DNA from: Pontiellaceae bacterium B1224 | GTDB taxonomy: Bacteria > Verrucomicrobiota > Kiritimatiellia > Kiritimatiellales > Pontiellaceae | NCBI GenBank assembly: GCA_029432815.1 | Contig: JAROBA010000010.1 | Location: 1 to 64,000, forward strand | DNA length: 64,000 nt | Direction of reading: 5' to 3' | In this document: in pieces, positions 1-64,000 of the stretch | How the letters are laid out: every line of letters starts with the position of its first letter | How positions within the stretch are numbered: position 1 is the first letter of the stretch | Translations under genes and position numbers: made by a program | Notes under the pieces: generated by a model | What the model saw: only the letters and a program-made list of their open reading frames with translations | What the model was told of the DNA's origin: nothing | Databases searched by the model: none

Positions 1-303
1 TGCTTCGCCAGCGGATGAGCTATGTATGGGATCGCTCCGAGCTGCTGACTCACCTTTCCATGAACCAGACCGCCGAGGGGCTTGTCCCCGCGTCCGCTCG
101 ATCCGCGCATCCGAGCGCCGGAGCCCGCTGGAAGCGGTCGGTATGCCAATGTGCCGCTAGCTTCCAGCCTGCTACGCGCACCGCATCCCTTGGTTCCGAG
201 CATTGGAACACATCCCTAAGGAAGTGCCTTTGTATCCGGAGTTGACAGGGACAGAGTATGAAAGTAAAAGGATGTACATAAAAGCGTACGTACGGAGGCG
301 GCC
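1..303. other. Gene-free left edge
   Basis: I find no recognisable protein here; the frames that stay open give low-complexity, Arg/Ser/Cys-rich translations typical of non-coding GC-rich DNA. Visible structure: an inverted repeat GCTGGAAGC (127-135) / GCTTCCAGC (160-168), and a near-copy of the window-wide palindrome at 194-208 (TTCCGA-GCA-TTGGAA). A TTGACA hexamer at 242-247 could be the -35 box of the toxin-antitoxin promoter. The stretch may be the tail of something lying left of the window. Confidence 0.4.
242..299 (+). promoter_or_regulatory. Toxin-antitoxin promoter/operator
   Basis: TTGACA at 242-247 is a consensus -35 box; no good -10 is visible. TGTACA (273-278) and CGTACG (285-290, within the longer palindrome CGTACGTACG) are 12 bp apart centre to centre, and the second abuts the Shine-Dalgarno GGAGG (294-298). 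The E. coli yefM-yoeB operator is known to have paired palindromes with TGTACA cores, so autorepression by the antitoxin is the natural reading. Inferred from arrangement only. Confidence 0.5.
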
Positions 304-564
304 ATGTCCACAATTACCGCAACAAATGCCAGAAAATCTTTTTTCGACTTGATGAAGGGCGTTAACCAGAAACACGAAATCTATCACATCAGCCATAAAG
401 ACGGCGCAGCCGTTTTGATGTCAGAAGAGGAATTTGAAAGCCTGCAGGAGACGCTCGACCTTTTATCAGCTAAAGGATTTCGGGAAGATTTTGATCGAGC
501 CCGAAAAGAGGTAGAGACGGGGGATACCGTTTCATTCGATGATGTTTTCGGAGAGCCGCAGTGA
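304..564 (+). CDS. Phd/YefM-family antitoxin
   Basis: An 86-residue protein with the layout of the Phd/YefM fold. The N-terminus (ITATNARKSFFDLMKGV) is the usual DNA-binding, dimerising part, followed by 'GAAVLMSEEEFESLQETL', the family's 'vlvs..ey..l.etl' region. The acidic, probably disordered C-terminal third would wrap the toxin. The ATG is preceded by GGAGG at 294-298. The stop overlaps the GTG start of the downstream toxin, so the two are translationally coupled. Expected role: neutralise the toxin and repress the shared promoter. Family call is strong; the exact partner type is inferred from the neighbour. Confidence 0.85.
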   Translation: MSTITATNARKSFFDLMKGVNQKHEIYHISHKDGAAVLMSEEEFESLQETLDLLSAKGFREDFDRARKEVETGDTVSFDDVFGEPQ

Positions 565-815
565 AATACGAGATCCGGTTTTCGCGTCAGGCCGAAAAGG
601 ATATCAGGAAACTCACGCCGAAGCTGAAACAAAAGCTCATGGATATTCTCAGGAACCAGATCGCGGTCGATCCCTATTCAGGGAAGGCCCTCATTGGTGA
701 TCTTAAGGGGTATTATTCCGTCAGGCTTAGTTATCAGGATCGGGTGGTGTATTCCATTGAAGATGATAAATTGGTGGTCTACATCATCCGCGTCAAAACC
801 CACTACGGAGACTGA
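561..815 (+). CDS. RelE/ParE-superfamily (YoeB/Txe-like) toxin
   Basis: An 84-residue basic protein starting at GTG within the antitoxin stop (GTGA overlap). It shows the RelE/ParE pattern: 'FSRQAEKDIRKL' (helix 1), 'GKALIGDLKGYYSVRLSYQDRVVYSIEDD' (central beta sheet with the usual L-x-G-x-x-S-x-R-l run) and the C-terminal 'VYIIRVKTHYGD'. The terminal H-Y pair sits where YoeB-type mRNases carry catalytic residues. If it follows YoeB, it cleaves mRNA at the ribosome; a ParE-like gyrase role cannot be excluded from sequence alone. No downstream gene lies within 100 bp on this strand. Confidence 0.82.
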   Translation: MKYEIRFSRQAEKDIRKLTPKLKQKLMDILRNQIAVDPYSGKALIGDLKGYYSVRLSYQDRVVYSIEDDKLVVYIIRVKTHYGD

Positions 816-1829: not shown

Positions 1830-1844
1830 TTCCAAGGGTTGGAA
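1830..1844. repeat. Palindrome copy, centre GGG
   Basis: Perfect arms TTCCAA/TTGGAA. Between the HAD start (7 nt) and metK; GGAA may serve as the HAD Shine-Dalgarno. Confidence 0.95.
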
Positions 1845-3182: not shown

Positions 3183-3197
3183 TTCCAAAGTTTGGAA
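3183..3197. repeat. Palindrome copy, centre AGT
   Basis: Perfect arms. Starts 5 nt after the metK stop and abuts the terminator. Confidence 0.95.
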
Positions 3198-4485: not shown

Positions 4486-5453
4486 TGCCGAAGCGGATCC
4501 TGATTATCGGACTCAACTGGATTGGCGATGCCATTATGAGCATGCCGGCTGTTCAGGCCTGCCGGGCCGAGAACCCAGACGCTCATATTGCCTTGCTGGT
4601 TAAACCGTACCTTAAGCCTATCTGGGAAATGCATGCCGTGCCGGATCAGATTCTTACATTGGATAAAATGGGAACCACCATTTCCAAGGTACGGGAATAT
4701 GGTTTTGATACGGCCTGCATTCTGCCGAACTCTTTTCGATCTGCATTGGTTCCGGCATTGGCGGGAATTCACCGACGGGTCGGTTTTAAAGGTGATCACC
4801 GGCGCTTACTGCTCACCGAGGTGGTTCCGGTTGCGGGGGGGCATCAATCGAACGAGTACTATCCGATTGTTGCGCCGGAATCGGTCGGCCTTGTGAAAGA
4901 ACTACCAGAATTGAATATTCCGGAAACCGCCTTCCAAACCTTGGAAACCAAGTTTCCAAACCTTGGAAAAAACTACGCAGTGCTGATGCCCGGAGCGGCA
5001 CGCGGCGCTTCAAAAATGTGGCCGCTCGATCATTTCGAACGGCTGGCCCGCATCGTAATGGAGCAAACAGATTTGGAGCTTGTTTTTGCCGGCGGCGGCG
5101 GAGATTCCGCCGCTTGTGAAGCGCTGTGCAGAACGCTGGGCGGTCGCACGCAAAGCGTGGCCGGGCAAACAAGCCTGCAGGAATGGGCGGCTCTTTTGAA
5201 GGGAGCGTCCGTAGCTGTAGCGAACGACAGCGGGGGTATGCATCTGGCCGCCGCCGTCGACACGCCTGTGGTGGGAATTTACGGGATTACCGACCCTGAA
5301 AAAACAGGGCCGCTGGCCCGCAGATACCGGGTGGTGCAAAACAGCAGTGTGAAAGCACGCGATATTTCCCGAAACTCCGAACGGGCGGCAGAAGCGCTAG
5401 CCTCTATTTCACCGGATCAGGTTTTCAACGCGGTTCAGGAACTTCTGAAATAA
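4485..5453 (+). CDS. waaF: ADP-heptose:LPS heptosyltransferase II
   Basis: A GT9-family glycosyltransferase that would add heptose to the inner LPS core. I place the start at the ATG within the lpxK stop (4485, '[15 protein letters not shown]'), not at an upstream in-frame codon (4458) inside lpxK, because the family begins with this beta strand and the overlap is a typical coupling. Seen: 'WIGDAIMSMPAVQ' (acceptor side), 'LMPGAARGASKMWP' and 'VANDSGGMHLAAAVDTPVVGIYG' (ADP-heptose site). Two complete palindrome copies at 4932 and 4954 lie in the linker between the two Rossmann domains, encoding FQTLE and FPNLG. Confidence 0.9.
   Translation: MPKRILIIGLNWIGDAIMSMPAVQACRAENPDAHIALLVKPYLKPIWEMHAVPDQILTLDKMGTTISKVREYGFDTACILPNSFRSALVPALAGIHRRVGFKGDHRRLLLTEVVPVAGGHQSNEYYPIVAPESVGLVKELPELNIPETAFQTLETKFPNLGKNYAVLMPGAARGASKMWPLDHFERLARIVMEQTDLELVFAGGGGDSAACEALCRTLGGRTQSVAGQTSLQEWAALLKGASVAVANDSGGMHLAAAVDTPVVGIYGITDPEKTGPLARRYRVVQNSSVKARDISRNSERAAEALASISPDQVFNAVQELLK
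4932..4946. repeat. Palindrome copy, centre ACC
   Basis: Perfect arms, inside waaF, read as FQTLE. First of a tandem pair. Confidence 0.95.
4954..4968. repeat. Palindrome copy, centre ACC
   Basis: Perfect arms, 22 bp after the previous copy start to start, same centre, read as FPNLG in another register. Confidence 0.95.
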
Positions 5454-5574: not shown

Positions 5575-5608
5575 AAAAAAAGCGCCCGAAAACTTCCAGA
5601 CGCTTTTT
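5575..5608 (-). terminator. Rho-independent terminator of carB
   Basis: Read on the minus strand, AAAAAGCG pairs with CGCTTTTT across a 16-nt loop (5577-5584 with 5601-5608) and ends in a seven-T run. It overlaps the palindrome copy at 5607-5621, which begins 8 nt after the carB stop. Confidence 0.6.
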
Positions 5609-5621
5609 CCAAGGGTTGGAA
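5607..5621. repeat. Palindrome copy, centre GGG
   Basis: Perfect arms. 8 nt past the carB stop, touching its terminator. Confidence 0.95.
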
Positions 5622-5629
5622 GCCGCTGT

Positions 5630-8600
5630 TTAAGCGTGATATTCCTGAATCGATTTCACATTCCAATCGTTTTTCGAAATGTACTTAATCGCTTTAACCG
5701 ATGCTTCTGCGCCGGACCGCGTGGTAACAATCGGCAGACCGCGCAGAATGGCTTCTGAACGAATCTTGATTTCATCCACACGGGCCACCGGTCCGCTGGG
5801 GGTATTCACCAGCAGTTGAACACCGTTCTCTTTCATTAGATCGATGACATTCTTGCCATCTTCGGAAAGTTTATGGGTCAGTGTCACTTCCAGACCGGCA
5901 TTATGAAGGGCCTGGGCCGTGCCTTCGGTCGCGACCAGACTGAAGCCGAGTTCAACGAACTCTTTTCCAACGGCTACGATCCAATCTTTATCGCGATCCT
6001 TCGCGCTGAGAAATACGGCGCCTTCCGTCGGCAGCACCTGTCCTGCGGCCACTTCGGCTTTCCAGAAGGCCAGCTCGAAGTTTTTATCAATCCCCATCAC
6101 CTCGCCGGTCGATTTCATTTCCGGGCCGAGGATCGGGTCAACTCCGGCAAAACGGTTGAACGGGAACACGGCTTCTTTAACGGCAAACCATTCAATCTTC
6201 GGTTCGAAACCAACCATGCCCAGTTCTTTCAGGGTTTTACCCATAGCAATCTGCGTGGCGAGATTGGCCATCGGAACATTGGTGGCTTTGGAAACATACG
6301 GCACTGTACGGGAAGCACGCGGGTTGACTTCGATGATGTAGAACTCATCTTCTTTAACCGCAATCTGGGCGTTCATCAGGCCTTTCACACCAATTTCCAT
6401 CGCCATGGCCGTACAGGCATCTTTAATGCGGGCCACCATTTCGTCAGAAAGGGTGTAGGGGGGGATCGAGCAGGCGGAGTCGCCGGAATGAATACCGGCT
6501 TCTTCAACGTGTTCCATCACGCCGCCGACATATACATCCGTGCCATCGCACACGAGATCCACGTCCACTTCAATGGCATGTTCCAGGAAGCGGTCGATCA
6601 GCACCGGATGATCCGGGCTGGCGGCAAAGGCCGCATTTACAAATGGTTCGAGTTCCTCTTCTTCATAGGCCACCATCATGGCGCGACCACCGAGAACGAA
6701 AGACGGACGAATCATGACCGGGAAGCCGATTTTTTCAGCAATCACTTCTGCTTCTTCAAGTGTGACAGCGGTGGCGGATTCCGGTTGTTTGAGTTCCAGT
6801 TTATCCAGCAGCTGGCGGAACAGTTCGCGGTCTTCTGCGGCCGCAATGGATTTCGGCGAAGTTCCAAGGATTGGAACGCCGGCTTCCAGCAGACGGTCGG
6901 CCAGATTGAGCGGAGTCTGTCCGCCCATCTGAACAATCATGCCGAGCGGTTTTTCCGCTTCGTAGATATTCATCACATCTTCAAAAGTCAGCGGTTCGAA
7001 ATAGAGTTTGTCGGAGGTGTCGTAGTCGGTTGAAACCGTTTCCGGGTTGGAGTTGACCATGATGGCTTCATAGCCCATTTCGCGCAACGCTTTTACGGTA
7101 TGCACGCAGGAATAGTCGAATTCAATACCCTGTCCGATCCGGTTTGGGCCGGACCCGAGTACAATCACACTCTGCTTATCGGTTTTACGGGTTTCGTCCA
7201 GATCGCCGTAGCAGGAGTAAAAATAGGGGGTTGATGCTTCAAATTCGCCGGCACAGGTATCGACCAGGCTGAAAACCGGGATGATTCCCAGTTCTTTTCG
7301 CAGTGCCCGGATATCATTTCCTTTACACCCGCGTAGTGCAGCAATCTGCTCATCGGAGAATCCGTTTTTCTTGGCATATTTCAGCAGGTCATAATCCAGC
7401 TCAGCGGCATCGATCAGCTGCTTTTCAATTTCAACAATCTGAAGAATCTGATCGATGAACCACGGATCAAGATGGGTCATTTCCTGAACCTTCTCGAGCG
7501 TGTATCCTTTCTTGAGGGCCACTTTGATGGCAATCGTGCGTTCCGTGCAGGTCGTCAGCAGATAATTATCCAACTCGCCAATCAGCTTGGCTTCCGCTTT
7601 CAGGTCCAGTCCGTCGACGCCAATTTCCAGGGATCGGAAGGCTTTCTGGAGCGATTCCTTAAAGTTACGGCCGATCGCCATGGTTTCGCCGACTGACTTC
7701 ATGCTGACGCCGAGGGTTGGATTGGCCGATGGGAATTTTTCGAAGGTGAAGCGGGGGAGCTTCGTGACAACATAGTCAATCGACGGCTCAAAACAGGCCG
7801 GGGTCTCTTTGGTGATGTCGTTGGGCAGTTCGTCGAGCGTGTATCCGACCGCCAGCTTGGCTGCCAGTTTGGCAATCGGGAACCCGGTTGCTTTGGAAGC
7901 GAGGGCCGAAGAACGCGAAACGCGCGGGTTCATTTCAATCACGGCCAGTCGGCCGGTTTCCGGATGGATGCAGAACTGTACGTTGGAACCGCCGGTTTCA
8001 ACACCGACGATGCGCAGTACCGCCAGCGACGCATCGCGCATGATCTGGTATTCACGATCGGTCAGCGTCTGGGCCGGAGCCACCGTGATGGAGTCGCCGG
8101 TATGAATGCCCATTGGGTCCATGTTTTCGATGGCGCAGATGATGACGGCATTGTCTTTTTTGTCGCGCATCACTTCCATCTCAAATTCTTTCCAGCCGAA
8201 TACCGATTCTTCGAGCAGGACTTCCGTCGTCAGACTGGCCTTCAGTCCGCCTTCCGCAATTTCCATCAGCTGTCCCATATTCTGGGCAATGCCGCCGCCG
8301 GTTCCGCCGAGTGTGAACGACGGACGAACGATGATCGGGAAATCCAGTTCTTCTGAGGCAATGCGCTTAGCGTCTTCCAGGCTGTGACATTCATAACTGC
8401 GCAGCGTTTCGATGTTTATTTCCGCCATCGCCTGTTTGAAAAGATCCCGTTCTTCGCCGCGCATGATGGCGTCGTATTTTGCGCCGATCATTTCCACGCC
8501 GTATTTTTCAAGAATACCCTGTTCCACCAGTTTCATGGCGGTGTTCAGTGCGGTCTGACCTCCAAGGGTTGGAAGAATGGCATCGGGCTTTTCTTTGATG

Positions 8601-8833: not shown

Positions 8834-8866
8834 ATTATCTTCCTCAACGGCTTAAATAAAAATATT

Positions 8867-8958: not shown

Positions 8959-10506
8959 TTACTCCCACTCGATGGTACTTGGGGGCTTGGAGCTGATGTC
9001 GTAGCAGACCCGGTTGACGCCCGGAACTTCGTTAATGATCCGGTTGGAGATGGAGTCCATGACTTCGTACGGCAGTTTGTACCAGTCGGCGGTCATGCCA
9101 TCGCGACTTTCAACGGCGCGGACAGCTACCACACTTTCATAGGTGCGGTCGTCGCCCATCACGCCGACCGTCTGGATCGGGAGCAGGACAGCAAAATATT
9201 GCCAGACATCCAAGTGGTTCGGCATTTTCATGATTTCTTCGCGGACGCGCAGGTCGGCCTGTTGCAGCACTTCGATGCGCTCGGGGGTGATGTCGCCGAT
9301 GATGCGGACGGCAAGACCCGGGCCCGGGAAGGGCTGGCGGTCGACGACGTAGCTCGGCAGGCCCAGCTCGCGGCCGACTTCGCGCACCTCATCTTTAAAG
9401 AGTTCGCGGAGCGGTTCCACCAGATCAAATTGCAGATCTTCCGGGAGGCCGCCGACATTGTGGTGGCTCTTGATGGTGGCAGACGGGCCGCCGATGGGGG
9501 AGACGGATTCAATGACGTCGGGATAGAGCGTGCCCTGACCGAGGAATTTAACCTTGTCGCTGAGGGCGCGTGCTTTTTCTGCAAAAACGTCGATGAATGT
9601 GCCGCCGATAATTTTCCGCTTTTCTTCCGGGTCGGAAATGCCTTTCAGTTTACCGAGGAACAGTTCACCGGCATGCGCAACGATCAGATCTATACCGAAG
9701 GCGCGCCCGAACAGATCTTCAATTTCTTCGGTTTCTTTGTGGCGCATTAGTCCGTTGTCGACATACACGCAGTGCAACTGGTCGCCGATAGCTTTGTGGA
9801 GCAGGGCGGCTACTACTGAGGAGTCGACGCCGCCGGACAGGCCGAGCAGCACGTGGTCTTTACCCACCTGATTCTGAATCTGTTTGACGGTGTTTTCGAT
9901 GAATTTGGACATTTCCCAATCGCCGGAGCATTTGCAGATGGTGAACGCAAAGTTCCACAGCATTTCTTTGCCCTGCGGGGTGTGGACCACTTCCGGATGA
10001 AACTGAACGCCGTAAATATTGCGGTCGAGATTCTGAATGGCGGCGAGCGGGCAGTTGTCGGATTCCGCAACCACTTCAAAGCCTTCCGGCATATTTTCCA
10101 CTTTGTCCCCGTGGCTCATCCAGACCTGGATGTCGGGCGCGAGTCCTTTAAAGAGCGGGGAGTCCTTTTTAATGGTCATCATGGCTTTGCCGTATTCGGC
10201 TTTGGCACCGCGATGCACTGAGCCGCCAAGGAGCTGCGAGGTCAGCTGCATGCCGTAACAGATTCCAAGGATTGGAAGCCCGAGGTCAAACAGCGCCGGG
10301 TCGCATTTCGGTGAATCTGCGTCGGGCACACTGCACGGGCCGCCGGAAAGAATGATGCCTTTCGGGGCGCGCTTCGTGAGTTCTTCTGCGGATGTGTCGA
10401 AGCGGATGATTTCGCAGTAGACTTTCTGCTCACGTAAACGACGGGCAATCAGCTGTGTGACTTGGGAGCCGTAATCAAGGATGGCAATCCATTCGGGATG
10501 ATTCAT
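8959..10506 (-). CDS. guaA: GMP synthase (glutamine-hydrolysing)
   Basis: GuaA converts XMP to GMP using glutamine and ATP. The 515 residues hold three parts in the usual order: a class I glutamine amidotransferase with nucleophile Cys in '[13 protein letters not shown]' (near 83) and the His/Glu pair in '[10 protein letters not shown]' (near 170); an ATP pyrophosphatase with PP-loop '[15 protein letters not shown]' (near 225); and a C-terminal dimerisation domain ending '[14 protein letters not shown]'. The start overlaps the carA stop by one base (TAATG), so it is co-translated with carA. The palindrome copy at 10263 encodes the PILG just before the catalytic Cys loop. Confidence 0.98.
10263..10277. 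repeat. Palindrome copy, centre GGA
   Basis: Perfect arms, inside guaA, PILG before the catalytic Cys. Confidence 0.95.
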
Positions 10507-11603
10507 TATTTATTTTCCTTCATTAAGTCGATGAACTCCTCAAAGAGGTAGAACGGATCGTGCGGGCCGGGGGCGGCTTCGGGGTGATACTGCACGCAGA
10601 AGAGCGGCTGTTTTTTATGTTTCAGTCCAGCGACCGTATTATCGTTAAGATTGAGGTGCGTGACTTCGGCGACTTCCGGATTGACCGTGTCGGCATCAAT
10701 ACAGAAGCCGTGGTTGTGCGATGCGATTTCCACTTTCGTGGTGCGCAGATCCTGAATCGGCTGATTGCCGCCGCGATGACCGAACTTCAGTTTAAAGGTG
10801 TCGGCCCCCAGCGCGCGGCCGAGCATCTGGTGCCCAAAACAGATTCCAAACATTGGAACTTTGGATTCGATCAGTTTTCCGACCAGAGCGGTGGTTTCCG
10901 GAGCGCCGGCTGGATCGCCGGGACCGTTGGAGACAAAAATACCGTCGTGGTTGGCGGCGAGAATATCTGCCGCATCAGAGGTGTTCGGGTAGACCGTGCA
11001 TTCGCAGCCGAGGTTTTCGAGAATACGAAGCTGATTCAGCTTAATGCCGCAGTCGATGACCGCTACCTTATAAAGAGCATCTGCTTTTCCACCTTCGGGC
11101 CAGACGTATGCTGAATCGATGGAAACCTCGGATGCGAGGTCGCGGCCAATCAGTCCTTCAGAAGCCTTCGCCTTGGCGATGAGACTTTCTTTATCTAAAT
11201 CTTCGGTGGAAACCACGCACTTCATTGCGCCTTTGTCGCGAATATGCAGGGTGATCGCACGGGTATCGACATCATCGATGCCGATTTTTCCGTTTTCTTC
11301 CAGATATTCGGGCAGTGATTTGGTTGCGCGCCAGTTGCTGTACATTCGTGAACATTCGCTCACTACCAGGCCCTGTGCAAAAATTCCGCGGGATTCCACA
11401 TCTTCGTCGTTGATGCCGTAATTGCCGATAAGCGGATAGGTCATGGTGACGATCTGGCCGTGATAGGAGGGGTCGGTCAGGATTTCCTGATAGCCGGTCA
11501 TGGAGGTATTGAAGACCAGTTCGCCGTAAAACTCGCCGGATCCGGCAAAGGCACGCCCCTCAAAACAAGTTCCATCTTCGAGTGCTATTATTGCTTTTTT
11601 CAT
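10506..11603 (-). CDS. carA: Carbamoyl-phosphate synthase, small subunit
   Basis: CarA hydrolyses glutamine and channels ammonia to CarB. It has 365 residues. The N-terminal CPSase domain begins '[18 protein letters not shown]'. The amidotransferase domain carries the nucleophile in '[19 protein letters not shown]' (near 250) and the His-Glu pair in '[13 protein letters not shown]' (near 340). A Shine-Dalgarno AGGA precedes the ATG. It is the first gene of carA-guaA-carB. A palindrome copy (10844-10858) encodes the PMFG of the nucleophile elbow, parallel to the copy at the same structural place in guaA. Confidence 0.98.
10844..10858. repeat. Palindrome copy, centre ACA
   Basis: Perfect arms, inside carA, PMFG before the catalytic Cys. 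Confidence 0.95.
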
Positions 11604-11709: not shown

Positions 11710-11724
11710 TTCCAACCCTTGGAA
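11710..11724. repeat. Palindrome copy, centre CCC
   Basis: Perfect arms in the gap between divergent carA and the HAD-fold gene; a TATAAT lies 11 bp to the left (11694-11699). Confidence 0.95.
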
Positions 11725-16340: not shown

Positions 16341-17528
16341 ATGCTGAATGAATTAAGAAATAAAGCCGAGACTGCTTTTAAAGCGAACGGCTTCCCGACC
16401 ACCAAAGAAGAGCTCTGGCGCTTCACGGATGTCTCCCGCGTGGCTTCTGCAGAGTTTTCCAATGATTGGAAAACCTCCGATCTGGAGTTCCAGCCATTGG
16501 ATAAAATTACGGTGGTTTTTGAGAATGGAAAACTGTCCCGCGAAAAATCAAATTTCGACGATCTGCCGAAGGGCGTTTGTATTGGTTCGATTCTGGATCT
16601 CGTAGATCCAAGGATTGGAACGTTGGCGGATGCTCAGAGTGCCTTCGTGTCCTCCAATACAGCTTATTTCAGCGATGGTGCTTTTATTGAAGTGACCGAT
16701 GGAACCAAGTTTGAAACGCCCATTCATCTCGTCTTTCTGGCCGATGTTGACGGGGCTGCATTTCATCTCCGCAATTTTATTTCGGCCGGCGTTGATTCTG
16801 AAGTCACCGTGATTGAAGAATACATCGGTCAGAGCGGGGCAACCTACTGGACGAATGTGGTGACGGAAGCGTTTGTTGCCGATCAGGGTTTTGTGGATCA
16901 TTATAAGGTGCAGCGTGAGAGTGCAACTTCTTTCCACTTCCAGACCCTGGAAGCGCATTTGGGCACGGGATCCGTTTTCAGCAACCATGCTGTCACGTTT
17001 GGTTCAGCACTGGGCCGGAATGATATTCGCGGCAAGCTGACCGGTGAAGAAGGCGAGGCGATCTGCAACGGACTTTATCTGCTGAAAGACAAACAGCATT
17101 TTGATACGCACATGTTTATGGATCATGCGGTACCGAAGTGCAACAGCCACGAGCTTTACAAGGGCATATTGGATGACAAATCGCGCGCGGTTTTCTGCGG
17201 TCGAATTCTGGTTCAGGAAGATGCTCAGGAAACGGATGCCATTCAGTCGAACGGAAATCTGTTATTGAGTCGTGGCGCAAAAGTAAACACGCTGCCGCAG
17301 CTTGAAATTTATGCCGACGATGTGAAATGCACGCACGGTGCAACCATTGGTGAGCTGGATGAAGTTGGTCTTTACTATCTGCAGACGCGAGGCATTGATC
17401 CGGTGAAGGGACGCGCGATGCTGACCTTCGCTTTTGCCAATGAAGTGCTTGACGAGGTGAAGTGCAAGGTCGCAAAAGCGTATATTGAAGGGCTGGTTCA
17501 TGAATGGTTGGAACAGGTTGAAAAATGA
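16341..17528 (+). CDS. sufD: Fe-S cluster assembly protein SufD
   Basis: SufD pairs with SufB in the SufBC2D scaffold. The 395-residue protein opens with the family's 'FPTTKEELWRFTDVS' and has a right-handed beta-helix core. The conserved C-terminal block reads 'LLSRGAKVNTLPQLEIYADDVKCTHGATIGELDEVGLYYLQTRGI', containing the Cys-Thr-His interface. Its stop overlaps the sufS start (ATGA). Palindrome copies at 16457 (SNDWK) and 16606 (PRIG) fall in the variable N-terminal part. The 32-nt gap before it consists of CGAAT-type words. Confidence 0.95.
   Translation: MLNELRNKAETAFKANGFPTTKEELWRFTDVSRVASAEFSNDWKTSDLEFQPLDKITVVFENGKLSREKSNFDDLPKGVCIGSILDLVDPRIGTLADAQSAFVSSNTAYFSDGAFIEVTDGTKFETPIHLVFLADVDGAAFHLRNFISAGVDSEVTVIEEYIGQSGATYWTNVVTEAFVADQGFVDHYKVQRESATSFHFQTLEAHLGTGSVFSNHAVTFGSALGRNDIRGKLTGEEGEAICNGLYLLKDKQHFDTHMFMDHAVPKCNSHELYKGILDDKSRAVFCGRILVQEDAQETDAIQSNGNLLLSRGAKVNTLPQLEIYADDVKCTHGATIGELDEVGLYYLQTRGIDPVKGRAMLTFAFANEVLDEVKCKVAKAYIEGLVHEWLEQVEK
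16457..16471. repeat. Palindrome copy, centre TGA
   Basis: Perfect arms in sufD, read as SNDWK. Confidence 0.95.
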
Positions 17529-18757
17529 CCAATTCGGCTCAGTATAACATCAAGGCAATCCGTAACGATTTTCCAATCCTTGGAAGAGAGATCTTCGGGA
17601 AACCGCTGGTCTATTTGGATAATGCCGCTTCGACGCAGCATCCGACTCCGGTGATCAATGCGGTTAAAGATCTGTATGAACAGAACTATTCAAACGTGCA
17701 TCGCGGCGTACATACGCTCAGTCAGGAGTCGTCGAACCTCTATGACGATGCGCGGGTGAAAGTGCGCGGCTTCATTCATGCCGCGTGTGTTCATGAAGTC
17801 ATTTTTACGAGCGGAGCAACCGAATCGATTAACCTGGTGGCGCAGTCCTATGCCCGGCCAATCCTGAAAGAGGGCGATGAGATACTGATCACCCACATGG
17901 AGCATCATTCCAACATTGTGCCCTGGCAGATTGTATGTGAGCAGACCGGCGCCACGTTGAAAGTGGTCCCGATTTCCGATAGGGGCGAGCTGGAAATGGA
18001 TCAGTTCCATGCCATGCTTTCCGAGAAAACCAAACTGGTTTCGGTCGTCCATGTTTCCAATGCGCTGGGTACCGTAAATCCGGTGAAGGAAATTATCGAT
18101 GCGGCGCATGCCATAGATGTTCCCGTACTCGTTGATGGAGCTCAGGCCATTCCGCATATTCCGGTTGATGTTCAGGCATTGGATGCCGACTTCTATGTGT
18201 TTTCGGGGCATAAGATTTACGGCCCCACCGGCATCGGTGTTTTATACGGAAAAGAAAAACTGTTGAATGCCATGCCGCCTTATCAGGGCGGCGGCGATAT
18301 GATCCTTTCCGTCAGTTTTGAAGGCACCACCTACAATCAGCTGCCGTACAAGTTTGAAGCCGGAACACCGAATATTGCCGGTGTCGTCGGTTTGGGGGCA
18401 GCCATTGATTACGTCAATAAAATCGGGCTCGCCACCATTGCTGCGCACGAAAACGGGCTGCTGGCTTATGCCACATCTAAACTTCGGTCGATTGACGGGC
18501 TGCGGATTATCGGCGAAGCCGATCAGAAAGCGGGCCTGATTTCCTTTGTGCTGGATGCGGTTCACCCACACGATATCGGTACCATAATCGATGGTGAAGG
18601 GGTGGCCGTTCGAGCGGGGCATCATTGCGCGCAACCGGTGATGGAACGTTATAAGGTTCCGGCAACAGCGCGCGCATCGTTTGCCATGTATAATACGTAT
18701 CAGGAAATTGATGTGCTGGCTGAAGCCATTAAGAAAACAATCGACATGTTTAAATAG
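17525..18757 (+). CDS. sufS: Cysteine desulfurase SufS
   Basis: A class V aminotransferase-fold PLP enzyme that takes sulfur from cysteine for cluster assembly. It has 410 residues. Seen: 'VYLDNAASTQHPTPV' at the N-terminus, 'HMEHHSNIVPWQ', 'VLVDGAQAIPHIPVDVQ', the PLP lysine in 'DFYVFSGHKIYGPTGIGVLYG' (near 228), and the catalytic cysteine loop 'VAVRAGHHCAQPVMERY' (near 365). It is coupled to sufD by a 4-nt overlap. A palindrome copy near the start (17571) encodes PILG, normally part of the family's 'DFPIL' opening. A second copy lies 3 nt after the stop. Confidence 0.97.
   Translation: MTNSAQYNIKAIRNDFPILGREIFGKPLVYLDNAASTQHPTPVINAVKDLYEQNYSNVHRGVHTLSQESSNLYDDARVKVRGFIHAACVHEVIFTSGATESINLVAQSYARPILKEGDEILITHMEHHSNIVPWQIVCEQTGATLKVVPISDRGELEMDQFHAMLSEKTKLVSVVHVSNALGTVNPVKEIIDAAHAIDVPVLVDGAQAIPHIPVDVQALDADFYVFSGHKIYGPTGIGVLYGKEKLLNAMPPYQGGGDMILSVSFEGTTYNQLPYKFEAGTPNIAGVVGLGAAIDYVNKIGLATIAAHENGLLAYATSKLRSIDGLRIIGEADQKAGLISFVLDAVHPHDIGTIIDGEGVAVRAGHHCAQPVMERYKVPATARASFAMYNTYQEIDVLAEAIKKTIDMFK
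17571..17585. repeat. Palindrome copy, centre TCC
   Basis: Perfect arms in sufS, read as PILG. Confidence 0.95.
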
Positions 18758-18760: not shown

Positions 18761-18775
18761 TTCCAAGGATTGGAA
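18761..18775. repeat. Palindrome copy, centre GGA
   Basis: Perfect arms, exactly 3 nt after the sufS stop and 19 nt before the sufU start. Confidence 0.95.
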
Positions 18776-27260: not shown

Positions 27261-27275
27261 TTCCAACCATTGGAA
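27261..27275. repeat. Palindrome copy, centre CCA
   Basis: Perfect arms, 17 nt after the GNAT-nitrilase stop, before the rhomboid-like start. Confidence 0.95.
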
Positions 27276-33889: not shown

Positions 33890-33904
33890 TTCCAATGATT
33901 GGAA
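33890..33904. repeat. Palindrome copy, centre TGA
   Basis: Perfect arms, 14 bp upstream of the icd -35 box. Confidence 0.95.
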
Positions 33905-38292: not shown

Positions 38293-38307
38293 TTCCAAAC
38301 ATTGGAA
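38293..38307. repeat. Palindrome copy, centre ACA
   Basis: Perfect arms, 3 nt after the leuD stop; a one-mismatch copy forms the terminator stem at 38328. Confidence 0.95.
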
Positions 38308-45437: not shown

Positions 45438-45516
45438 AGTTGCATCCTTTTCTAAAAATAATGCGCGCGATTAAACAGGCATACGCCACTTGAAACAAGT
45501 CTGTTACCTAATAATT

Positions 45517-45545: not shown

Positions 45546-45550
45546 GATAG

Positions 45551-46842: not shown

Positions 46843-46857
46843 TTCCAAGGTTTGGAA
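46843..46857. repeat. Palindrome copy, centre GGT
   Basis: Perfect arms, 3 nt past the atpK stop, next to the bidirectional terminator. Confidence 0.95.
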
Positions 46858-54094: not shown

Positions 54095-55030
54095 TTACAT
54101 GAAAGCCATCTGCTTCAGAAGTTGTAATGTAATATTCCCCGTAATTTCAAGACTGTCTGCACTAATATTCTGCAGGCGATCCGCTTCTGTATGCCAATGA
54201 TCATTCAATCCAGGCTTGGAGCCAAACTTAAAGTCAATCAAGTCGATGGAAGGAATGCCGATTTGGAGAAAGGGCACATGATCATCTGTAATGATCGAGC
54301 GCGACAATGTGAAATGATCCCGATATCCCAGCGTATGGGCCGCGTTCAGTGTATTCTGTACCAGATCACTTGTGCTGTTATACGGGATGGTGAATTGCAG
54401 ATCTGGGTCGCCGACCATATCGAGCAGAATCATGGCGCGGATTTTTTTATGATCTCCGGTTTCAACGAGCTGAACAGCCATATGGCGGCTTCCGTGTAAT
54501 CCATCGCCGGGAACATAGCCTGCAATACCTTCTTCACCGTCGAAAAATGCAAAAATAATTCCAAGGTCTGGAACCACCTTGGATTCGCTGATCAGACGCG
54601 CCAGTTCCAGCAAAACGCCGGTGCTGGATCCCGAATCATTCGCACCCTGAAAATCATCAATCCCGGGCATCGTGTCGAAATGCGATCCGAGGATAATCCA
54701 TTCCTTTTTTTTCCCGGGAATCATGCCGATGACATTGATCATCGTTTTTTCACCTTCCGGTGTCATATCGACGAAGGTATTCATTTCAGCATCAACGCCA
54801 AACGTTTCCAATCGTTGGAAAATATGTTTTGCAGCCTTCCAACCTTCGGAAGTCCCGGCATCGCGCGGCGTAAACTGCACCAACGCTTCAACTTCAGTAA
54901 AGGCCTTCTGCCCGTCAAAAGCAGGTAAGTTGGATGCAGTTTTTTCCTGCTGACATCCAACCATTGGAAGTATAGAGACACAAAGTCCTAGAGCAATGAT
55001 ACATTGCGTCCGTTGTGTCTTTGGCTTCAT
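54095..55030 (-). CDS. M28-family zinc peptidase or glutaminyl cyclase-like lipoprotein
   Basis: About 311 residues from ATG 55030. Signal peptide with lipobox 'LPMVGC' (Cys near 26), so probably a lipoprotein. The catalytic domain has M28 ligands: 'WIILGSHFDTMPGIDDFQGANDSGSSTG' (His, Asp bridging, then Asp), 'IFAFFDGEEGIAG' (Glu-Glu), 'ILLDMVGDPD' (Asp) and a late His ('NDHWHTEADRLQNIS'). The D-x-N-D-x-G-S and F-D-G-E-E pattern resembles glutaminyl-peptide cyclotransferases as well as aminopeptidases, so the activity is open. Palindrome copies at 54559, 54806 and 54955; the last encodes the lipobox. Confidence 0.82.
   Translation of the reverse strand: MKPKTQRTQCIIALGLCVSILPMVGCQQEKTASNLPAFDGQKAFTEVEALVQFTPRDAGTSEGWKAAKHIFQRLETFGVDAEMNTFVDMTPEGEKTMINVIGMIPGKKKEWIILGSHFDTMPGIDDFQGANDSGSSTGVLLELARLISESKVVPDLGIIFAFFDGEEGIAGYVPGDGLHGSRHMAVQLVETGDHKKIRAMILLDMVGDPDLQFTIPYNSTSDLVQNTLNAAHTLGYRDHFTLSRSIITDDHVPFLQIGIPSIDLIDFKFGSKPGLNDHWHTEADRLQNISADSLEITGNITLQLLKQMAFM
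54806..54820. repeat. Palindrome copy, centre TCG
   Basis: Perfect arms in the M28 peptidase gene, FQRLE. Confidence 0.95.
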
Positions 55031-56157: not shown

Positions 56158-56172
56158 TTCCAATCATTGGAA
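56158..56172. repeat. Palindrome copy, centre TCA
   Basis: Perfect arms, 10 bp upstream of the recA -35 box. Confidence 0.95.
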
Positions 56173-56294: not shown

Positions 56295-57908
56295 ATGACG
56301 AAAACAAACAAGCTGTTTAAACTGAATATTGAGCGTCCCCGGAATGTAAAAAACGACATTCTATCCGGCCTGACCGTGGCGCTGGCGCTCGTTCCTGAAG
56401 CAGTCGCATTTTCATTTGTGGCCAAAGTGGATCCGGTTATCGGTCTCTATGCGGCTTTCATGATGGGACTGATCACCGCCATCTTCGGCGGACGGCCCGG
56501 CATGATCTCTGGTGCAACCGGTGCGGTGGCGGTCATCTTTGCTCCTTTAATGATGGAGTTGGCGGTGCCGGGCATTCTTCCGGAAGGAGTAAGCAAAGAG
56601 AGCTACCTTTTTGCAGCAGTCATTTTGATGGGGGTCATACAGATGATCTTTGGTATTTTTAAGCTGGGTAAGTTTATCCGCCTGGTGCCGCATCCGGTGA
56701 TGCTCGGTTTTGTGAACGGGCTGGCGATCATCATCTTTAAATCACAGTTTGAAATGTTTTATGTCGGCCACGGTGAACACTCGCACCTGCTGCCGGCCGT
56801 TGATTTGGTCTATATGGGAGCGATGATTGCTCTGACCATGGCGATCAGCTTTTTCCTGCCTAAACTTACCAAAGCCGTACCGGCCACGCTTGCCGCCATC
56901 GTGACAGTAACCATTATATCTATTGTCCTTCAGAAATTGGGTATTCACGAATCCCGCAACGTACTCGATTTTGTGCAGGGGATGGATCCGACGAAAACAA
57001 CCATTGCGGCCGGACTTCCAACCTTTGGAATTCCGAAGATTCCTTTCAACTGGGAAACCTTCATGATGATTCTTCCCTTCTCTGCGTTGGCGGCCGCTGT
57101 TGGCTTGATTGAATCGCTGATGACCCTGACGCTGGTGGACGAAATTACGGAAACCCGGGGTCGTGGAAACAAAGAATGCAGAGGGCAGGGACTGGCCAAT
57201 ATTGTAAATGGATTTTTCGGTGGTATGGGCGGTTGTGCCATGATCGGCCAGAGTATGATTAACATACGTGGCGGCGGCCGAGGTCGTTTGTCCGGCATTG
57301 CAGCAGCACTTTTCCTTTTGGCCATTCTGCTCATTGCAGCACCGTTGGTGGAAATCATTCCGCTGGCCGCGCTGGTCGGGGTGATGTTTATGGTCGTGAT
57401 CGGTACCTTCGAGTGGTCCAGCCTTCGTTTGTTCGGCAGCATTCCGAAAATGGATATCTTTATCATCATCCTGGTTTCGGTTGTAACGGTGATGCACGAC
57501 CTTGCAATTGCCGTGCTTGTCGGAATCGTTGTATCCGCACTGGCTTTTGCCTGGGAGCATGGCAAAAAGATCCATGCGAACATCATGGTGGATGAACACG
57601 GCACAAAGGTCTACAAGTTGGAGAGCGCTCTGTTTTTCGGTTCCGCTCAATCCTTTAAAGATCTGTTCGATCCATTGAACGATCCGACGGATGTCGTGAT
57701 TGATTTTCAGAAGGCGCGCGTCTATGATCATTCCGCCATAGAGGCGATCAATAACATTACCGAGCGCTATGCCGATCAGGGCAAAAACCTGCATTTGCTC
57801 AACCTGAGTCCTGAGTGCCTTGAGCTCATGGAAAAGGCCGACAACATCATCGAGATCAGCGTGATCGAGGATCTCGACTGGCACATTGCTGACAACCGCT
57901 TGGGTTAA
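56295..57908 (+). CDS. SulP (SLC26) family anion transporter with STAS domain
   Basis: A 537-residue inner-membrane transporter. 'RNVKNDILSGLTVALALVPEAVAFSFVAKVDPVIGLYAAFMMGLITAIFGGRPGMISGATGAVAVIF' is the SulP N-terminal signature including the TM3 anion-site region. Ten to fourteen TM helices run to about residue 420, then a STAS domain (about 435-530, 'VYKLESALFFGSAQSFKDLF...VIDFQKARVYDHSAIEAINNI'). The family carries sulfate, bicarbonate or dicarboxylates; the 'GATGAVAVI' form is common in bicarbonate-like members. Substrate undecided. Confidence 0.92.
   Translation: MTKTNKLFKLNIERPRNVKNDILSGLTVALALVPEAVAFSFVAKVDPVIGLYAAFMMGLITAIFGGRPGMISGATGAVAVIFAPLMMELAVPGILPEGVSKESYLFAAVILMGVIQMIFGIFKLGKFIRLVPHPVMLGFVNGLAIIIFKSQFEMFYVGHGEHSHLLPAVDLVYMGAMIALTMAISFFLPKLTKAVPATLAAIVTVTIISIVLQKLGIHESRNVLDFVQGMDPTKTTIAAGLPTFGIPKIPFNWETFMMILPFSALAAAVGLIESLMTLTLVDEITETRGRGNKECRGQGLANIVNGFFGGMGGCAMIGQSMINIRGGGRGRLSGIAAALFLLAILLIAAPLVEIIPLAALVGVMFMVVIGTFEWSSLRLFGSIPKMDIFIIILVSVVTVMHDLAIAVLVGIVVSALAFAWEHGKKIHANIMVDEHGTKVYKLESALFFGSAQSFKDLFDPLNDPTDVVIDFQKARVYDHSAIEAINNITERYADQGKNLHLLNLSPECLELMEKADNIIEISVIEDLDWHIADNRLG
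57016..57030. repeat. Palindrome copy, centre CCT
   Basis: Perfect arms in the SulP gene, PTFG. Confidence 0.95.
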
Positions 57909-59531: not shown

Positions 59532-59828
59532 TTATTGTGAGAAAGGGATGTGATCAATTTCCTGAAATTCAGCAACTTCGTTCAGCCATACCTGCTGAAC
59601 AAAAGCCACGTGCTCCGGATGGGTATTGTAGGCATCGTATGTCGACTGATCCGGAAATTCCATGGAAAGCCCGAAATCGAACGAGTTCTTTGGACTGACT
59701 TCTTCCAGTAGTTGGAAATTTCCAACCCCTGGAATGGATGAAAGTGCAGCGGCTTTTGAAAGAAACAGCGCCTCTGCGTCTGAGCCCTTTTTGTGGATTA
59801 ACTTAAAAAATACAGAATGAGTAATCAT
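59532..59828 (-). CDS. Dabb-domain stress-response A/B barrel protein
   Basis: A 98-residue protein from ATG 59828 ('MITHSVFFKLIHKKGSDAEALFLSKAAAL'); an in-frame extension to 59894 is not needed. It has the dimeric ferredoxin-like Dabb pattern: first strand 'HSVFFKL', then 'FDFGLSMEFPDQSTYDAYNTHPEHVAFVQQVW', the family's 'l...f.d...l..Y..hP.H..f' block. Members include stress proteins and small cyclases. Two palindrome copies lie 2 bp apart in the middle (59703-59734), coding PGVG-N-FQLLE. Confidence 0.85.
   Translation of the reverse strand: MITHSVFFKLIHKKGSDAEALFLSKAAALSSIPGVGNFQLLEEVSPKNSFDFGLSMEFPDQSTYDAYNTHPEHVAFVQQVWLNEVAEFQEIDHIPFSQ
59703..59734. repeat. Two palindrome copies 2 bp apart
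   Basis: TTCCAG-TAG-TTGGAA (59703-59717) and TTCCAA-CCC-CTGGAA (59720-59734), each with one mismatch, side by side in the Dabb gene. Confidence 0.85.
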
Positions 59829-60514: not shown

Positions 60515-60529
60515 AGTGAATGATCCAAT

Positions 60530-61554: not shown

Positions 61555-62207
61555 TGGTGCATACGAATCACAGTTCCAATCATTGGAAATCCGGCCTGAC
61601 CTTTCTGGAGCTGTTGCTGGCCGTTGCCATTTCCGGGCTCATTCTGGCGGCTTCGGCACAGCTGATGTTTTCGTTCGGCAACTTTTGGAAACAGACTGAG
61701 CTGGAACCGCGCTTTGAACACCATGTCGAAGGCGTGGTTTCGTTTGTGCAATACTGCCTCGATGAAACGGAAGAGCTCTCGCGTAATCCTGACAGTCCGT
61801 TTGGATGGAAGAAAGCGCCGGACGTTCGCCAAAATGTTATTCAGTTTCGACTCGCCGCTCCACCGCCGTTTTTTGTGACCGATATACGCCCGGTTCCGCA
61901 GGTCGATGGCTGGCTCTATTTCGACGAAGACAAAGGGTTGACGATTCTGTGGCATGTTCCGGAAAAACTCACCGAAGGAAAAAGGGAGATGAAACAGACC
62001 CTGCTTTCCCCGTGGGTTGAAGATCTGGAGCTGGGTTATTTTGATGCTGAAAATAATACGTGGGAGTACGAATCTTCCGCGGACGAAGAATATAAATCAT
62101 CGGGTAAGCCTCCCGGGGCGCTACGTATTGTGTTTAATCAAAATGGGCGGAAAAAGACGCGTAATATCCGTCTGCTCCGCCACGACCGCCATGTACTTGT
62201 TTACTAA
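61554..62207 (+). CDS. Type II secretion minor pseudopilin, GspJ-like
   Basis: From ATG 61554 at the stop of the preceding gene, 217 residues. The leader is 'NHSSNHWKSGLTFLELLLAVAISGLILAASAQLMF' with G|L-T-F-L-E. A perfect palindrome copy (61574-61588) encodes the SNHWK directly before the cleavage site, so the motif makes part of the prepilin leader. GspJ assignment is by order and length. It overlaps gspK by 17 nt. Confidence 0.78.
   Translation: MVHTNHSSNHWKSGLTFLELLLAVAISGLILAASAQLMFSFGNFWKQTELEPRFEHHVEGVVSFVQYCLDETEELSRNPDSPFGWKKAPDVRQNVIQFRLAAPPPFFVTDIRPVPQVDGWLYFDEDKGLTILWHVPEKLTEGKREMKQTLLSPWVEDLELGYFDAENNTWEYESSADEEYKSSGKPPGALRIVFNQNGRKKTRNIRLLRHDRHVLVY
61574..61588. repeat. Palindrome copy, centre TCA
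   Basis: Perfect arms at the gspJ prepilin leader, SNHWK. Confidence 0.95.
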
Positions 62208-63282
62208 TCCATCTGAAAAACGGCGCGAAGGTGCCGTACTGCTGATTGTGCTCGGAGTCATCCTGCTCGCAAGCTGGATGCTGGTGCAGATCATTGCACG
62301 GGTTGGCGAAGAGATGGCTTTGCGTGGGGAAGATGAACAGAACGATGCCCTTCAGGCATCCGCTTTCCAATCCTTGGAAATCACGCTGGGTGTTCTTGCA
62401 GAAATCAAAGTGCTCGATGGTGGCCTCTACAGTCCCGTACAGGGGTGGGGCAATCCATTGGCCTATGCCGGCTTTGCATCCCATGCTGTTTCGAATGAAC
62501 TGGGGTTCGTAGAAGACGACGAGCTGGAGGTTGGGGGCGTCGATGAAATTGTTCCGTTTGCATTTCCTCCCGGTATTCAGGTTGCGGTGGAGCTTCGCGA
62601 TGAATCGGGCCGTTTTCCGCTTAACACGACGTCTGAAGAGCGGTGGAAGTTGCTGTTTGAAGAAATGGAGATTCAGTCTTCCGATGCCGCGATACTGACA
62701 GACAGCCTGCTGGACTGGATTGATGCCGACGATGAAACTCGGTTAAACGGCGCAGAAAACGGAACGTATCAGCGGCGCGATCCCGCCTACCTTCCGGCGA
62801 ATGCGCCGATTGCGAATCTATTGGATCTTCAGTTGATCGAAGGATTCGATCGTCTGTTCTTTGATGAAGAAGGCATTCCGAATGATCTGTACCGTACCTT
62901 TAAGGAGTGCGTTACCGTAATCAATTGTGAAGCCGTGAACCTGAATGCCGCTCATCCGCTGGTGCTTGAGGTGATGGGCGAAGAACTCGATTTTGAACCC
63001 GAACGAATTACCGATTATATGGCCGGTATTGACATGGAACCGGGGACGCTGGATGACAATGTCCTGCGTCCGGGACTCGACGATCCCGACCTGCCAACGG
63101 ACAACGAAGGCGAGCCCCTCGATTTAAGCACAACCAGCCGTTTTCTAACGGTCTACATTTCCGCGATGTCCGGAGGAACGGTCTTTAATCTTTCCGCACG
63201 CCTCGATACAGAGACGCCTTCTGAACATCATATCTATCCGATGACGATTCTGGATTTACAGACGAAAGGGTCAACCCTGTGA
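62191..63282 (+). CDS. Type II secretion minor pseudopilin GspK-like
   Basis: From ATG 62191 ('MYLFTNPSEKRREGAVLLIVLGVILLASWMLVQII'), 363 residues; upstream in-frame sequence back to 62017 lies inside gspJ and is not pilin-like. The leader E-G|A-V-L-L-I-V and the large extra domain with 'RFPLNTTSEERWKLLFEEM', 'LTDSLLDWIDADDETRLNGAEN' and 'VNLNAAHPLVLEVMG' are typical of GspK, the pseudopilus cap that contacts calcium. A perfect palindrome copy (62365) encodes FQSLE early in the mature region. Confidence 0.88.
   Translation: MYLFTNPSEKRREGAVLLIVLGVILLASWMLVQIIARVGEEMALRGEDEQNDALQASAFQSLEITLGVLAEIKVLDGGLYSPVQGWGNPLAYAGFASHAVSNELGFVEDDELEVGGVDEIVPFAFPPGIQVAVELRDESGRFPLNTTSEERWKLLFEEMEIQSSDAAILTDSLLDWIDADDETRLNGAENGTYQRRDPAYLPANAPIANLLDLQLIEGFDRLFFDEEGIPNDLYRTFKECVTVINCEAVNLNAAHPLVLEVMGEELDFEPERITDYMAGIDMEPGTLDDNVLRPGLDDPDLPTDNEGEPLDLSTTSRFLTVYISAMSGGTVFNLSARLDTETPSEHHIYPMTILDLQTKGSTL
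62365..62379. repeat. Palindrome copy, centre TCC
   Basis: Perfect arms in gspK, FQSLE. Confidence 0.95.
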
Positions 63283-64000
63283 CCGAAAAACCATTAAAAA
63301 CAGAAAATAAAACCATTGTTCCAATGACGCCCGATCCGGTGCGATTGGTGCCTTCGGCGCGGTTTATTGTCGAGACGCTGGAACTGCCACCCGGTATTTC
63401 GCCACGCGACACGCCGGGCTTTCTGGAAGGTGAGGTCGAAGAACGATCTCTTTTCGCGCTTGAATCCACGTCGTGGGGCTATATGGAAACCCGAAAAAAG
63501 GGTTCCCCTGTTTCAATCCTTTTGTATTCAGCATTCCGGGATCAGGTAAACGGCGAAAGCGATCCGCATTACGCAGAGCGCCACGCGGTGCTTCCGGGCT
63601 TTGCAGCATTGGTCGGCCGAACCTGGCGGAAGACAACCTGGGTCACGCTGCTGGAACCGGCGTGCGTCACGCTGGTTCGCATTCCGGCTCGTTCCGGAAT
63701 TCCGAATTTTGTGCGCAGTCTGTATGGCAAGCGATTGGATGACGATTTGCTTACGGCCTGGGCTTTGCGCGATACGCTGTTGAATGACGTGGAAGTGTTG
63801 GAAGATGAGTGCATCGAAGAAGGACTGGTTCGATGCAAAAATCCTTCCAATGATCGGAAAGGCGGGGTGGTTTTCCCGCTCGAACGCTGTCTCGCTCCCG
63901 ACGAAAGCTGGAAACGGTTTGGCAGTGGGAAGCTCCTTTCGGAAGCAACCTTACGGGCCGCCGATGTTCGGGATTCGCATTTTCTGAATCAGATGAGAAA
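63279..64000 (+). CDS. Open-ended T2SS gene, GspL-like candidate
   Basis: A frame from GTG 63279 (overlapping the gspK stop, GTGA) stays open to the window end, 240 residues so far. The early part 'RFIVETLELPPGISPRDTPGFLEGEVEERSLFALESTSWGY' looks like the PilM/GspL fold's 'lp......e.eL....pf'. 'NDVEVLEDECIEEG' and 'TAWALRDTLLN' follow. Position right after gspK is where GspL is expected. Assignment is positional plus weak similarity. A one-mismatch palindrome (63845) gives SNDRK. No stop in this frame was found by hand translation. Confidence 0.6.
   Translation, partial: MTEKPLKTENKTIVPMTPDPVRLVPSARFIVETLELPPGISPRDTPGFLEGEVEERSLFALESTSWGYMETRKKGSPVSILLYSAFRDQVNGESDPHYAERHAVLPGFAALVGRTWRKTTWVTLLEPACVTLVRIPARSGIPNFVRSLYGKRLDDDLLTAWALRDTLLNDVEVLEDECIEEGLVRCKNPSNDRKGGVVFPLERCLAPDESWKRFGSGKLLSEATLRAADVRDSHFLNQMR

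What the first reader, a model, noticed from the sequence alone, without database searches (positions are those of the whole stretch)
194..63859. A highly iterated 15-bp palindrome, TTCCAANSNTTGGAA, runs through the whole window
Seen by hand: 26 copies with both 6-nt arms perfect (1830, 3183, 4932, 4954, 5607, 6862, 10263, 10844, 11710, 16457, 17571, 18761, 25483, 27261, 28619, 33890, 38293, 41399, 43119, 45631, 46843, 54806, 56158, 57016, 61574, 62365). About 21 more have one arm mismatch (194, 1771, 8560, 13278, 16606, 20682, 28348, 32699, 33027, 35252, 38328, 41701, 42464, 42895, 44385, 45944, 54559, 54955, 59703, 59720, 63845). Twelve fixed bases predict about 0.004 perfect copies in 64 kb. 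No common flanking sequence was noticed, so it is not a transposed element. Comparable known phenomena are cyanobacterial HIP1 and the Haemophilus/Neisseria uptake sequences, whose density of about one per 1-2 kb is similar. Candidates: DNA uptake or repair tag, methylase target, or nucleoid/segregation protein site. I know of no description of this motif.
Basis: partly seen in the sequence, partly recalled or inferred. Interest (0 to 1): 0.95.

Follow-up and report, generated by a model that had tools for sequence, protein, structure and literature searches.

The report
Class-wide palindrome tag in Kiritimatiellia genomes
Over a thousand copies of one 15-letter palindrome are scattered through this bacterium's chromosome, made by point mutation and kept even at the cost of altering protein sequences, which points to an undescribed genome-wide protein recognition site in the class Kiritimatiellia, perhaps a self-tag for DNA uptake or a chromosome-organising site.

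Summary
TTCCAANSNTTGGAA occurs 26 times perfectly in the window (shuffles 0.01) and 1177 times in the 5.38 Mb genome (reversed control 0). In genes there are 90 copies in 510 kb, against 3.1 after synonymous codon shuffling. Only the 3-bp spacer is enriched. One- and two-mismatch forms are in excess; three-mismatch forms are not. The motif is abundant and patchy across the class Kiritimatiellia (up to 3044 copies per genome) and at chance level in the rest of the phylum.

Copies arise by substitution. Motif-rich relatives keep exactly the synonymous codons that spell the motif; motif-poor relatives do not. The motif also alters proteins: FQxLE occurs 84 times where 2 are expected.

In related families the copies stand in tandem at 31/32 bp (also 22, 52, 63, 84 bp) with a 10.45-10.5 bp period, so they lie on one face of the helix. 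This is strong evidence for a dimeric DNA-binding protein that acts cooperatively.

The binder was not found. An Lrp/AsnC protein was tested and not supported. Best guess: a self-tag of the DNA-uptake-sequence type (copy number and decay track loss of ComEC, weakly). Close rival: a nucleoid-architecture protein. No earlier description was found in the open-access library searched.

The parts
1830..1844 (.). perfect copy, intergenic, near the start of the gene 935-1822(-)
3183..3197 (.). perfect copy 5 bp after the stop of metK (1990-3177), before its terminator-like hairpin
4932..4968 (.). two perfect copies 22 bp apart in a gene (FQTLE and FPNLGK)
5607..5621 (.). perfect copy 8 bp after the stop of carB
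6862..6876 (.). perfect copy in carB, spelling VPILGT; kept by synonymous codons in motif-rich relatives and absent from motif-poor ones
10263..10277 (.). perfect copy in guaA (LPILGI)
10844..10858 (.). perfect copy in the gene 10506-11603(-) (VPMFGI)
11710..11724 (.). perfect copy in a divergent intergenic region
16457..16471 (.). perfect copy in a gene (FSNDWK); a 2-mismatch partner lies 31 bp downstream
17571..17585 (.). perfect copy in a gene (FPILGR)
18761..18775 (.). perfect copy 3 bp after a stop codon
25483..25497 (.). perfect copy in a gene (FQALE)
27261..27275 (.). perfect copy shortly after a stop codon (or inside the next gene, if its GTG start at 27248 is used)
28619..28633 (.). 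perfect copy in a gene (LPIIGM)
33890..33904 (.). perfect copy in a divergent intergenic region
38293..38307 (.). perfect copy 3 bp after a stop codon
41399..41413 (.). perfect copy in a metallophosphatase-like gene (FSNDWK)
43119..43133 (.). perfect copy in a gene (FQSLE)
45631..45645 (.). perfect copy in a gene (LPTFGK)
46843..46857 (.). perfect copy directly after a terminator-like hairpin, intergenic by the refined gene calls
54806..54820 (.). perfect copy in a gene (FQRLE), with a 1-mismatch copy at 54837 (31 bp away)
56158..56172 (.). perfect copy in a divergent intergenic region
57016..57030 (.). perfect copy in a SulP-type permease gene (LPTFGI)
61574..61588 (.). perfect copy at the start of a gene (SSNHWK) in a type II secretion/pseudopilin cluster
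62365..62379 (.). perfect copy in the T2SS protein K-like gene (FQSLE)
59703..59734 (.). two 1-mismatch copies 17 bp apart, intergenic

Best explanation
Shown: the motif is a sharply defined 15-bp (weakly 19-bp) palindromic site of high information content. It is maintained genome-wide by selection or drive at the DNA level, created and lost by point substitution, and evenly spread over the chromosome; in related families it is assembled into arrays phased by whole helical turns. Inferred, very likely: a homodimeric protein recognises it and binds neighbouring copies cooperatively on one face of the helix. Inferred, moderately likely: the protein marks DNA as 'self' in natural transformation. 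In that case the motif is a DNA uptake sequence that accumulates through biased uptake and recombination of motif-bearing fragments, which would explain why thousands of individually unimportant copies are kept even where they change amino acids, and why they decay when uptake is lost.
For: Only spacer 3 is enriched, 49 copies against 0 at spacers 0-2 and 4-12. Excess at 0, 1 and 2 mismatches (161/195/151 against 0.2/4.8/44) and none at 3 (313 against 340); a decline of overrepresentation with mismatch load is described for known uptake sequences (PMC1939737). Orthologues: codon identity at motif codons with unchanged amino acid is 0.68-0.93 in motif-rich relatives (elsewhere 0.55-0.61) but 0.19-0.36 in three motif-poor or decaying ones (elsewhere 0.47-0.52), almost without gaps; carB shows it directly. 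Proteome imprint: FQxLE 84 against 2, 83 of the 84 encoded by motif DNA with at most 2 mismatches. Even spread and peak just after stop codons. Genes next to arrays are diverse. In motif-bearing families 1 of 8 genomes without detected ComEC has at least 50 copies, against 56 of 98 with it (Fisher p 0.023, tallied by hand). The exception, G080, has a decay profile (8/9/21 perfect/1/2 mismatches in 196 kb) next to its relative G079 (73/32/14).
Against: Known uptake sequences are not palindromic arrays, and phasing by 3 helical turns is not a known property of them. ComEC, DprA and PilT are also present in most motif-poor genomes, so a further, unidentified factor is needed. The ComEC association rests on few independent losses, partly in incomplete MAGs, without phylogenetic correction. 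G004 and G024 have ComEC yet show decay. The receptor is unknown, and nothing here shows that these bacteria take up DNA. Two phage-like contigs carry phased arrays.
Confidence: 0.37

Rival explanations
1. Architectural (nucleoid) site: an abundant intracellular homodimeric protein binds the thousands of sites, cooperating on one DNA face, and organises or loops the chromosome or insulates genes.
For: Helical phasing: family f2 Rayleigh nR2 = 29 at period 10.45 (p about 2e-13); f8+f17 nR2 = 83 at 10.5 (p about 1e-36). Tandem triples in 40 of 346 class genomes, control 0. Even spread. No recurrent target gene.
Against: Each of thousands of sites would have to be selected strongly enough to change amino acids. 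Patchy loss within one genus. No clear phasing in the window's own genome (p 0.04; 17, 28, 29 and 31 bp spacings). No binder found.
Confidence: 0.3
2. Operator of a global transcription regulator, for example of the Lrp/AsnC type, that binds phased operators.
For: Intergenic density 5 times coding; divergent regions richest (24 perfect in 16 kb against 7 in 11.7 kb convergent). Two- and three-turn phasing of binding sites is known for Lrp proteins (PMC2995911).
Against: More than half of the perfect copies lie inside genes; the sharpest peak is just after stop codons, not at promoters. The only AsnC protein found in the own genome is conserved with nearly the same HTH in motif-poor relatives.
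Confidence: 0.1
3. Self/non-self tag for a defence or recombination enzyme (Chi-like): motif-bearing DNA is spared or repaired preferentially.
For: Genome-wide even density; phased arrays in phage-like contigs, as if phages mimic the tag; patchy distribution.
Against: Chi sites are not palindromic or phased (own knowledge). The phage contigs may be resident prophages that acquired the motif like the rest of the chromosome. No nuclease was identified.
Confidence: 0.09
4. Target of a DNA methyltransferase or restriction-modification system.
For: Overrepresented palindromes in cyanobacteria (HIP1 and others) accompany methyltransferases (PMC4390886).
Against: A 12-base specified target with a preferred G/C centre, soft flanks and phased tandem arrays is unlike known methylase targets (own knowledge); restriction usually causes avoidance. 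Methyltransferase families were not profiled.
Confidence: 0.05
5. Copies of a mobile or REP-like element.
For: Some arrays in G057 share longer flanks (L025/L029).
Against: No shared flanks in the own genome; orthologous in-gene sites differ by substitution, almost never by gaps.
Confidence: 0.01

Closest known systems
DNA uptake sequences (Neisseria DUS, Pasteurellaceae USS)
   Same: High copy number, gradual decline with mismatch load; also, from own knowledge, location in genes and between genes, patchiness between relatives and an imprint on proteins
   Different: Palindromic, 15-19 bp, phased by helical turns in several families; receptor and uptake not shown
HIP1 (GCGATCGC) of cyanobacteria
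   Same: Palindrome repeated over the whole genome, lineage-wide with exceptions
   Different: HIP1 is 8 bp, contains methylase targets and is not known to stand in phased arrays; this motif has a degenerate 3-bp centre
Lrp/AsnC (feast/famine) binding sites, e.g. Ss-LrpB, FL11
   Same: 13-15 bp palindrome with a short centre (own knowledge); neighbouring sites two or three helical turns apart (PMC2995911)
   Different: Thousands of conserved sites; the lineage's AsnC protein does not track the motif
Chromosome-organising sites (MatP matS, Noc NBS, SlmA, ParB parS)
   Same: 13-16 bp palindromes bound by dimers (own knowledge)
   Different: Tens of sites, against about a thousand evenly spread; no protein known here

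Membership tests
DNA uptake sequence (DUS/USS) | Strong overrepresentation of a short motif, falling with mismatch load | tested here: met
   compare PMC1939737
DNA uptake sequence (DUS/USS) | Copies arise by substitution in coding and non-coding DNA and imprint proteins | tested here: met
   (substitution shown for coding copies; non-coding copies were not aligned)
DNA uptake sequence (DUS/USS) | Competence machinery (ComEC, DprA, type IV pilus) in motif-bearing genomes | tested here: inconclusive
   Present in nearly all, but also in most motif-free genomes; depletion and decay where ComEC is missing rest on few events
DNA uptake sequence (DUS/USS) | Motif-bearing DNA is taken up preferentially | not testable with these tools
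   needs uptake assays
DNA uptake sequence (DUS/USS) | Specific pilin receptor | not tested
   no candidate found
Highly iterated palindrome (HIP1 type) | Palindrome overrepresented genome-wide | tested here: met
Highly iterated palindrome (HIP1 type) | Associated methyltransferase recognising the motif or its core | not tested
   methyltransferase families were not profiled
REP / mobile palindromic element | Copies are insertions with conserved sequence beyond the palindrome | tested here: not met
Lrp/AsnC operator | Sites phased by two or three helical turns | tested here: met
   Families f2, f8, f17; not in the own genome
Lrp/AsnC operator | The AsnC protein or its HTH tracks the motif | tested here: not met
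Regional chromosome site (matS, parS, NBS) | Few sites, clustered in one chromosomal region | tested here: not met
   1177 copies; 10-kb bins Poisson-like

The most novel reading that the evidence does not exclude
Kiritimatiellia use a sequence-specific chromosome-architecture protein that binds thousands of high-information sites on one face of the DNA, and the demand for sites is strong enough to rewrite codons and amino acids across the proteome. No bacterial nucleoid protein with so many such specific sites is known to me.
Probability: 0.27. Interest if true: 0.95.

Novelty: new variant of a known kind. Interest (0 to 1): 0.83.

Why it matters
Genome-wide motifs that accumulate copy by copy are well documented in only a few lineages. 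This one is class-specific, palindromic, helically phased in several families, and leaves a 40-fold imprint on a peptide pattern in proteins. That makes it a natural experiment on how a DNA-level drive competes with protein selection. The species with and without it include close relatives, so the driver gene should be findable. If it is an uptake sequence, it would be the first known to me in the PVC group and would mean self-biased DNA exchange there. If it is an architectural site, it would be a new class of bacterial nucleoid protein. It also distorts codon and motif statistics in these genomes and could mislead motif-based annotation.

Tried and rejected
Lrp/AsnC as binder: single copy nearly everywhere, near-identical HTH in motif-poor genomes; not supported. 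Autoregulation: the few phased pairs in motif-poor genomes lie next to restriction-, helicase- and nucleotidyltransferase-like (SMODS-like) genes rather than a regulator. Recurrent neighbours of arrays: only small groups (they look like sulfatases, autotransporter-like repeats and a PLP-type decarboxylase next to an ATP-grasp protein; not searched against a library), no common target. PilT and DprA as discriminating genes: present nearly everywhere. Known RNA families in the window: none. Mobile element: rejected by orthologue alignments. Mutational artefact or codon usage: rejected by codon-preserving shuffles and by single-spacer specificity. Papers: none with the motif; two Pontiella species papers contain no mention of palindromes.
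Full report
Observation. All 21 one-mismatch copies are right and two more exist. The window's own genome holds 1177 perfect copies in 5.38 Mb; the pattern read backwards gives none. In coding DNA of a 584-kb sample there are 90 copies, against 3.1 +/- 1.7 after shuffling synonymous codons within genes.

Anatomy. Among spacers of 0 to 12 bases between TTCCAA and TTGGAA only 3 is enriched: 49 copies in 184 kb of the own genome against none at any other spacer. In 584 kb of the own genome there are 161 perfect, 195 one-mismatch and 151 two-mismatch copies (order-3 Markov expectation 0.2, 4.8 and 44), while three-mismatch forms are at expectation. Tolerated changes are A to G at arm positions 5 and 4 and changes of the outermost T; the TCC/GGA core changes in only 6 of 195 one-mismatch copies. 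The central base is G or C in 94-99%, and T before and A after the palindrome are preferred. This is the profile of one specific recognition event, not of a compositional bias.

Where copies lie. In the own genome 69 of 161 perfect copies are intergenic, in 12.8% of the sequence, and 90 are inside genes. Intergenic density peaks in the first 10 bp after stop codons (about 8 per kb for copies with at most one mismatch) and is fairly flat upstream of starts. Counts per 10 kb are close to Poisson (variance/mean 1.10), so there are no hotspots. Gene calls were made with a simple script, so positions relative to starts are approximate.

How copies arise. The carB copy at 6862 spells VPILGT. Across 30 orthologues the protein is nearly invariant there, and 15 genomes of the two families, the own one included, have the perfect motif by exact synonymous choice, while motif-poor genomes spell the same residues otherwise. 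For perfect in-gene sites with orthologues in relatives, codon identity at unchanged residues is 0.80, 0.86, 0.71, 0.68, 0.93 and 0.93 in motif-rich G008, G016, G021, G027, G031 and G037 (elsewhere 0.55-0.61), but 0.19, 0.27 and 0.36 in G003, G018 and G004 (elsewhere 0.47-0.52). Amino-acid identity at the sites also drops in those three (0.64-0.67 against 0.81-0.86). Gaps are rare. The numbers of sites per genome are small (1 to 10). Starting from a genome chosen for having the motif biases the motif-poor values downward, but it cannot by itself raise the motif-rich ones.

Imprint on proteins. FQxLE, the frame-0 reading, occurs 84 times in the sampled proteins of the own genome, against 2 after shuffling residues; 83 of the 84 are encoded by DNA within two mismatches of the motif. 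The other frames are enriched too. Rates in relatives go roughly with motif density, with small samples in most.

Phasing. In other families copies stand in tandem. Successive distances in the loci outside the own genome are 31 or 32 bp 213 times, with minor classes at 21-22 bp; most of those loci were selected for such pairs. In family f2, where the stretches were not selected for arrays, the Rayleigh statistic is 29 at a period of 10.45 bp (p about 2e-13). The f8 and f17 stretches, chosen because they hold motif copies, give 83 at 10.5 bp (p about 1e-36). Pair distances within one array are not independent, so these p values are too small, but the phase histograms leave little doubt. The own genome shows no clear phase (p 0.04). 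Tandem triples occur in 40 of 346 genomes of the class, none in the control pattern. Regular whole-turn spacing means that the copies present the same face of the double helix, as for cooperative binding of dimers; Lrp proteins are the documented parallel, with two or three turns between sites (PMC2995911).

Distribution. Searches over 346 genomes of the class and 279 of the phylum show the motif in about a dozen families and at chance level outside the class (at most 5 copies per genome). Density varies steeply between close relatives (76 against 20 per Mb in the sister pair G027/G024; carB tree).

What it does. Thousands of individually dispensable copies that nevertheless change codons and residues are easier to explain by a drive acting on each copy than by a shared benefit. 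Biased uptake of motif-bearing DNA followed by recombination is the known drive of this kind (own knowledge of the DUS/USS literature). In motif-bearing families 56 of 98 genomes with detected ComEC have at least 50 copies, against 1 of 8 without it (p 0.023, not corrected for relatedness; tallied by hand, test). That one, G080, shows a decayed profile beside its relative G079. But ComEC, DprA and PilT are also present in most motif-poor genomes, G004 and G024 decay with ComEC present, and phased arrays are not expected of an uptake sequence. An architectural protein explains phasing better and the imprint on proteins worse. I put the uptake reading slightly ahead, without conviction; that a dimeric binding protein exists I hold at about 0.9.

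Tests that failed. The Lrp/AsnC protein does not track the motif. Array neighbours are diverse. The binder remains unknown.

Noticed in passing
window 8864-8897, 8913-8939, 45514-45547: A second dispersed repeat of the form CCTCGCAGAGGCGNAGAGTNCGCAGAG, present in both orientations; a similar string stands next to a motif array in L038.
   Followed up: no
L178, L179 (IMGVR_UViG_3300035698_006241) and L181 (IMGVR_UViG_3300035527_000387): Contigs with phage portal and protease genes, or Mu-like transposition and terminase genes, carry phased arrays of the motif, in one case (L179 14358-14466) overlapping an open reading frame; they may be resident prophages.
   Followed up: partly
L199, L200, L202 (motif-poor genomes G050, G056, G054): The few phased pairs in motif-poor genomes lie next to HSDR_N, SMODS-like and ResIII genes, which suggests import of defence islands from motif-rich relatives.
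   Followed up: partly
own genome, several contigs: In the window's own genome close pairs favour 17, 28-29 and 31 bp rather than whole helical turns; the reason is unknown.
   Followed up: partly
own genome C22:50001-60000 and C138:30001-40000: 10-kb stretches without any copy (at most one mismatch), possibly recently acquired DNA.
   Followed up: no
window 60050-63282: A type II secretion/pseudopilin gene cluster (T2SSG, N_methyl, T2SSK).
   Followed up: partly
G024 (L259-L260) and G004 (L257-L258): Genomes with few perfect but excess one- and two-mismatch copies, as if the motif were decaying although ComEC is present.
   Followed up: partly
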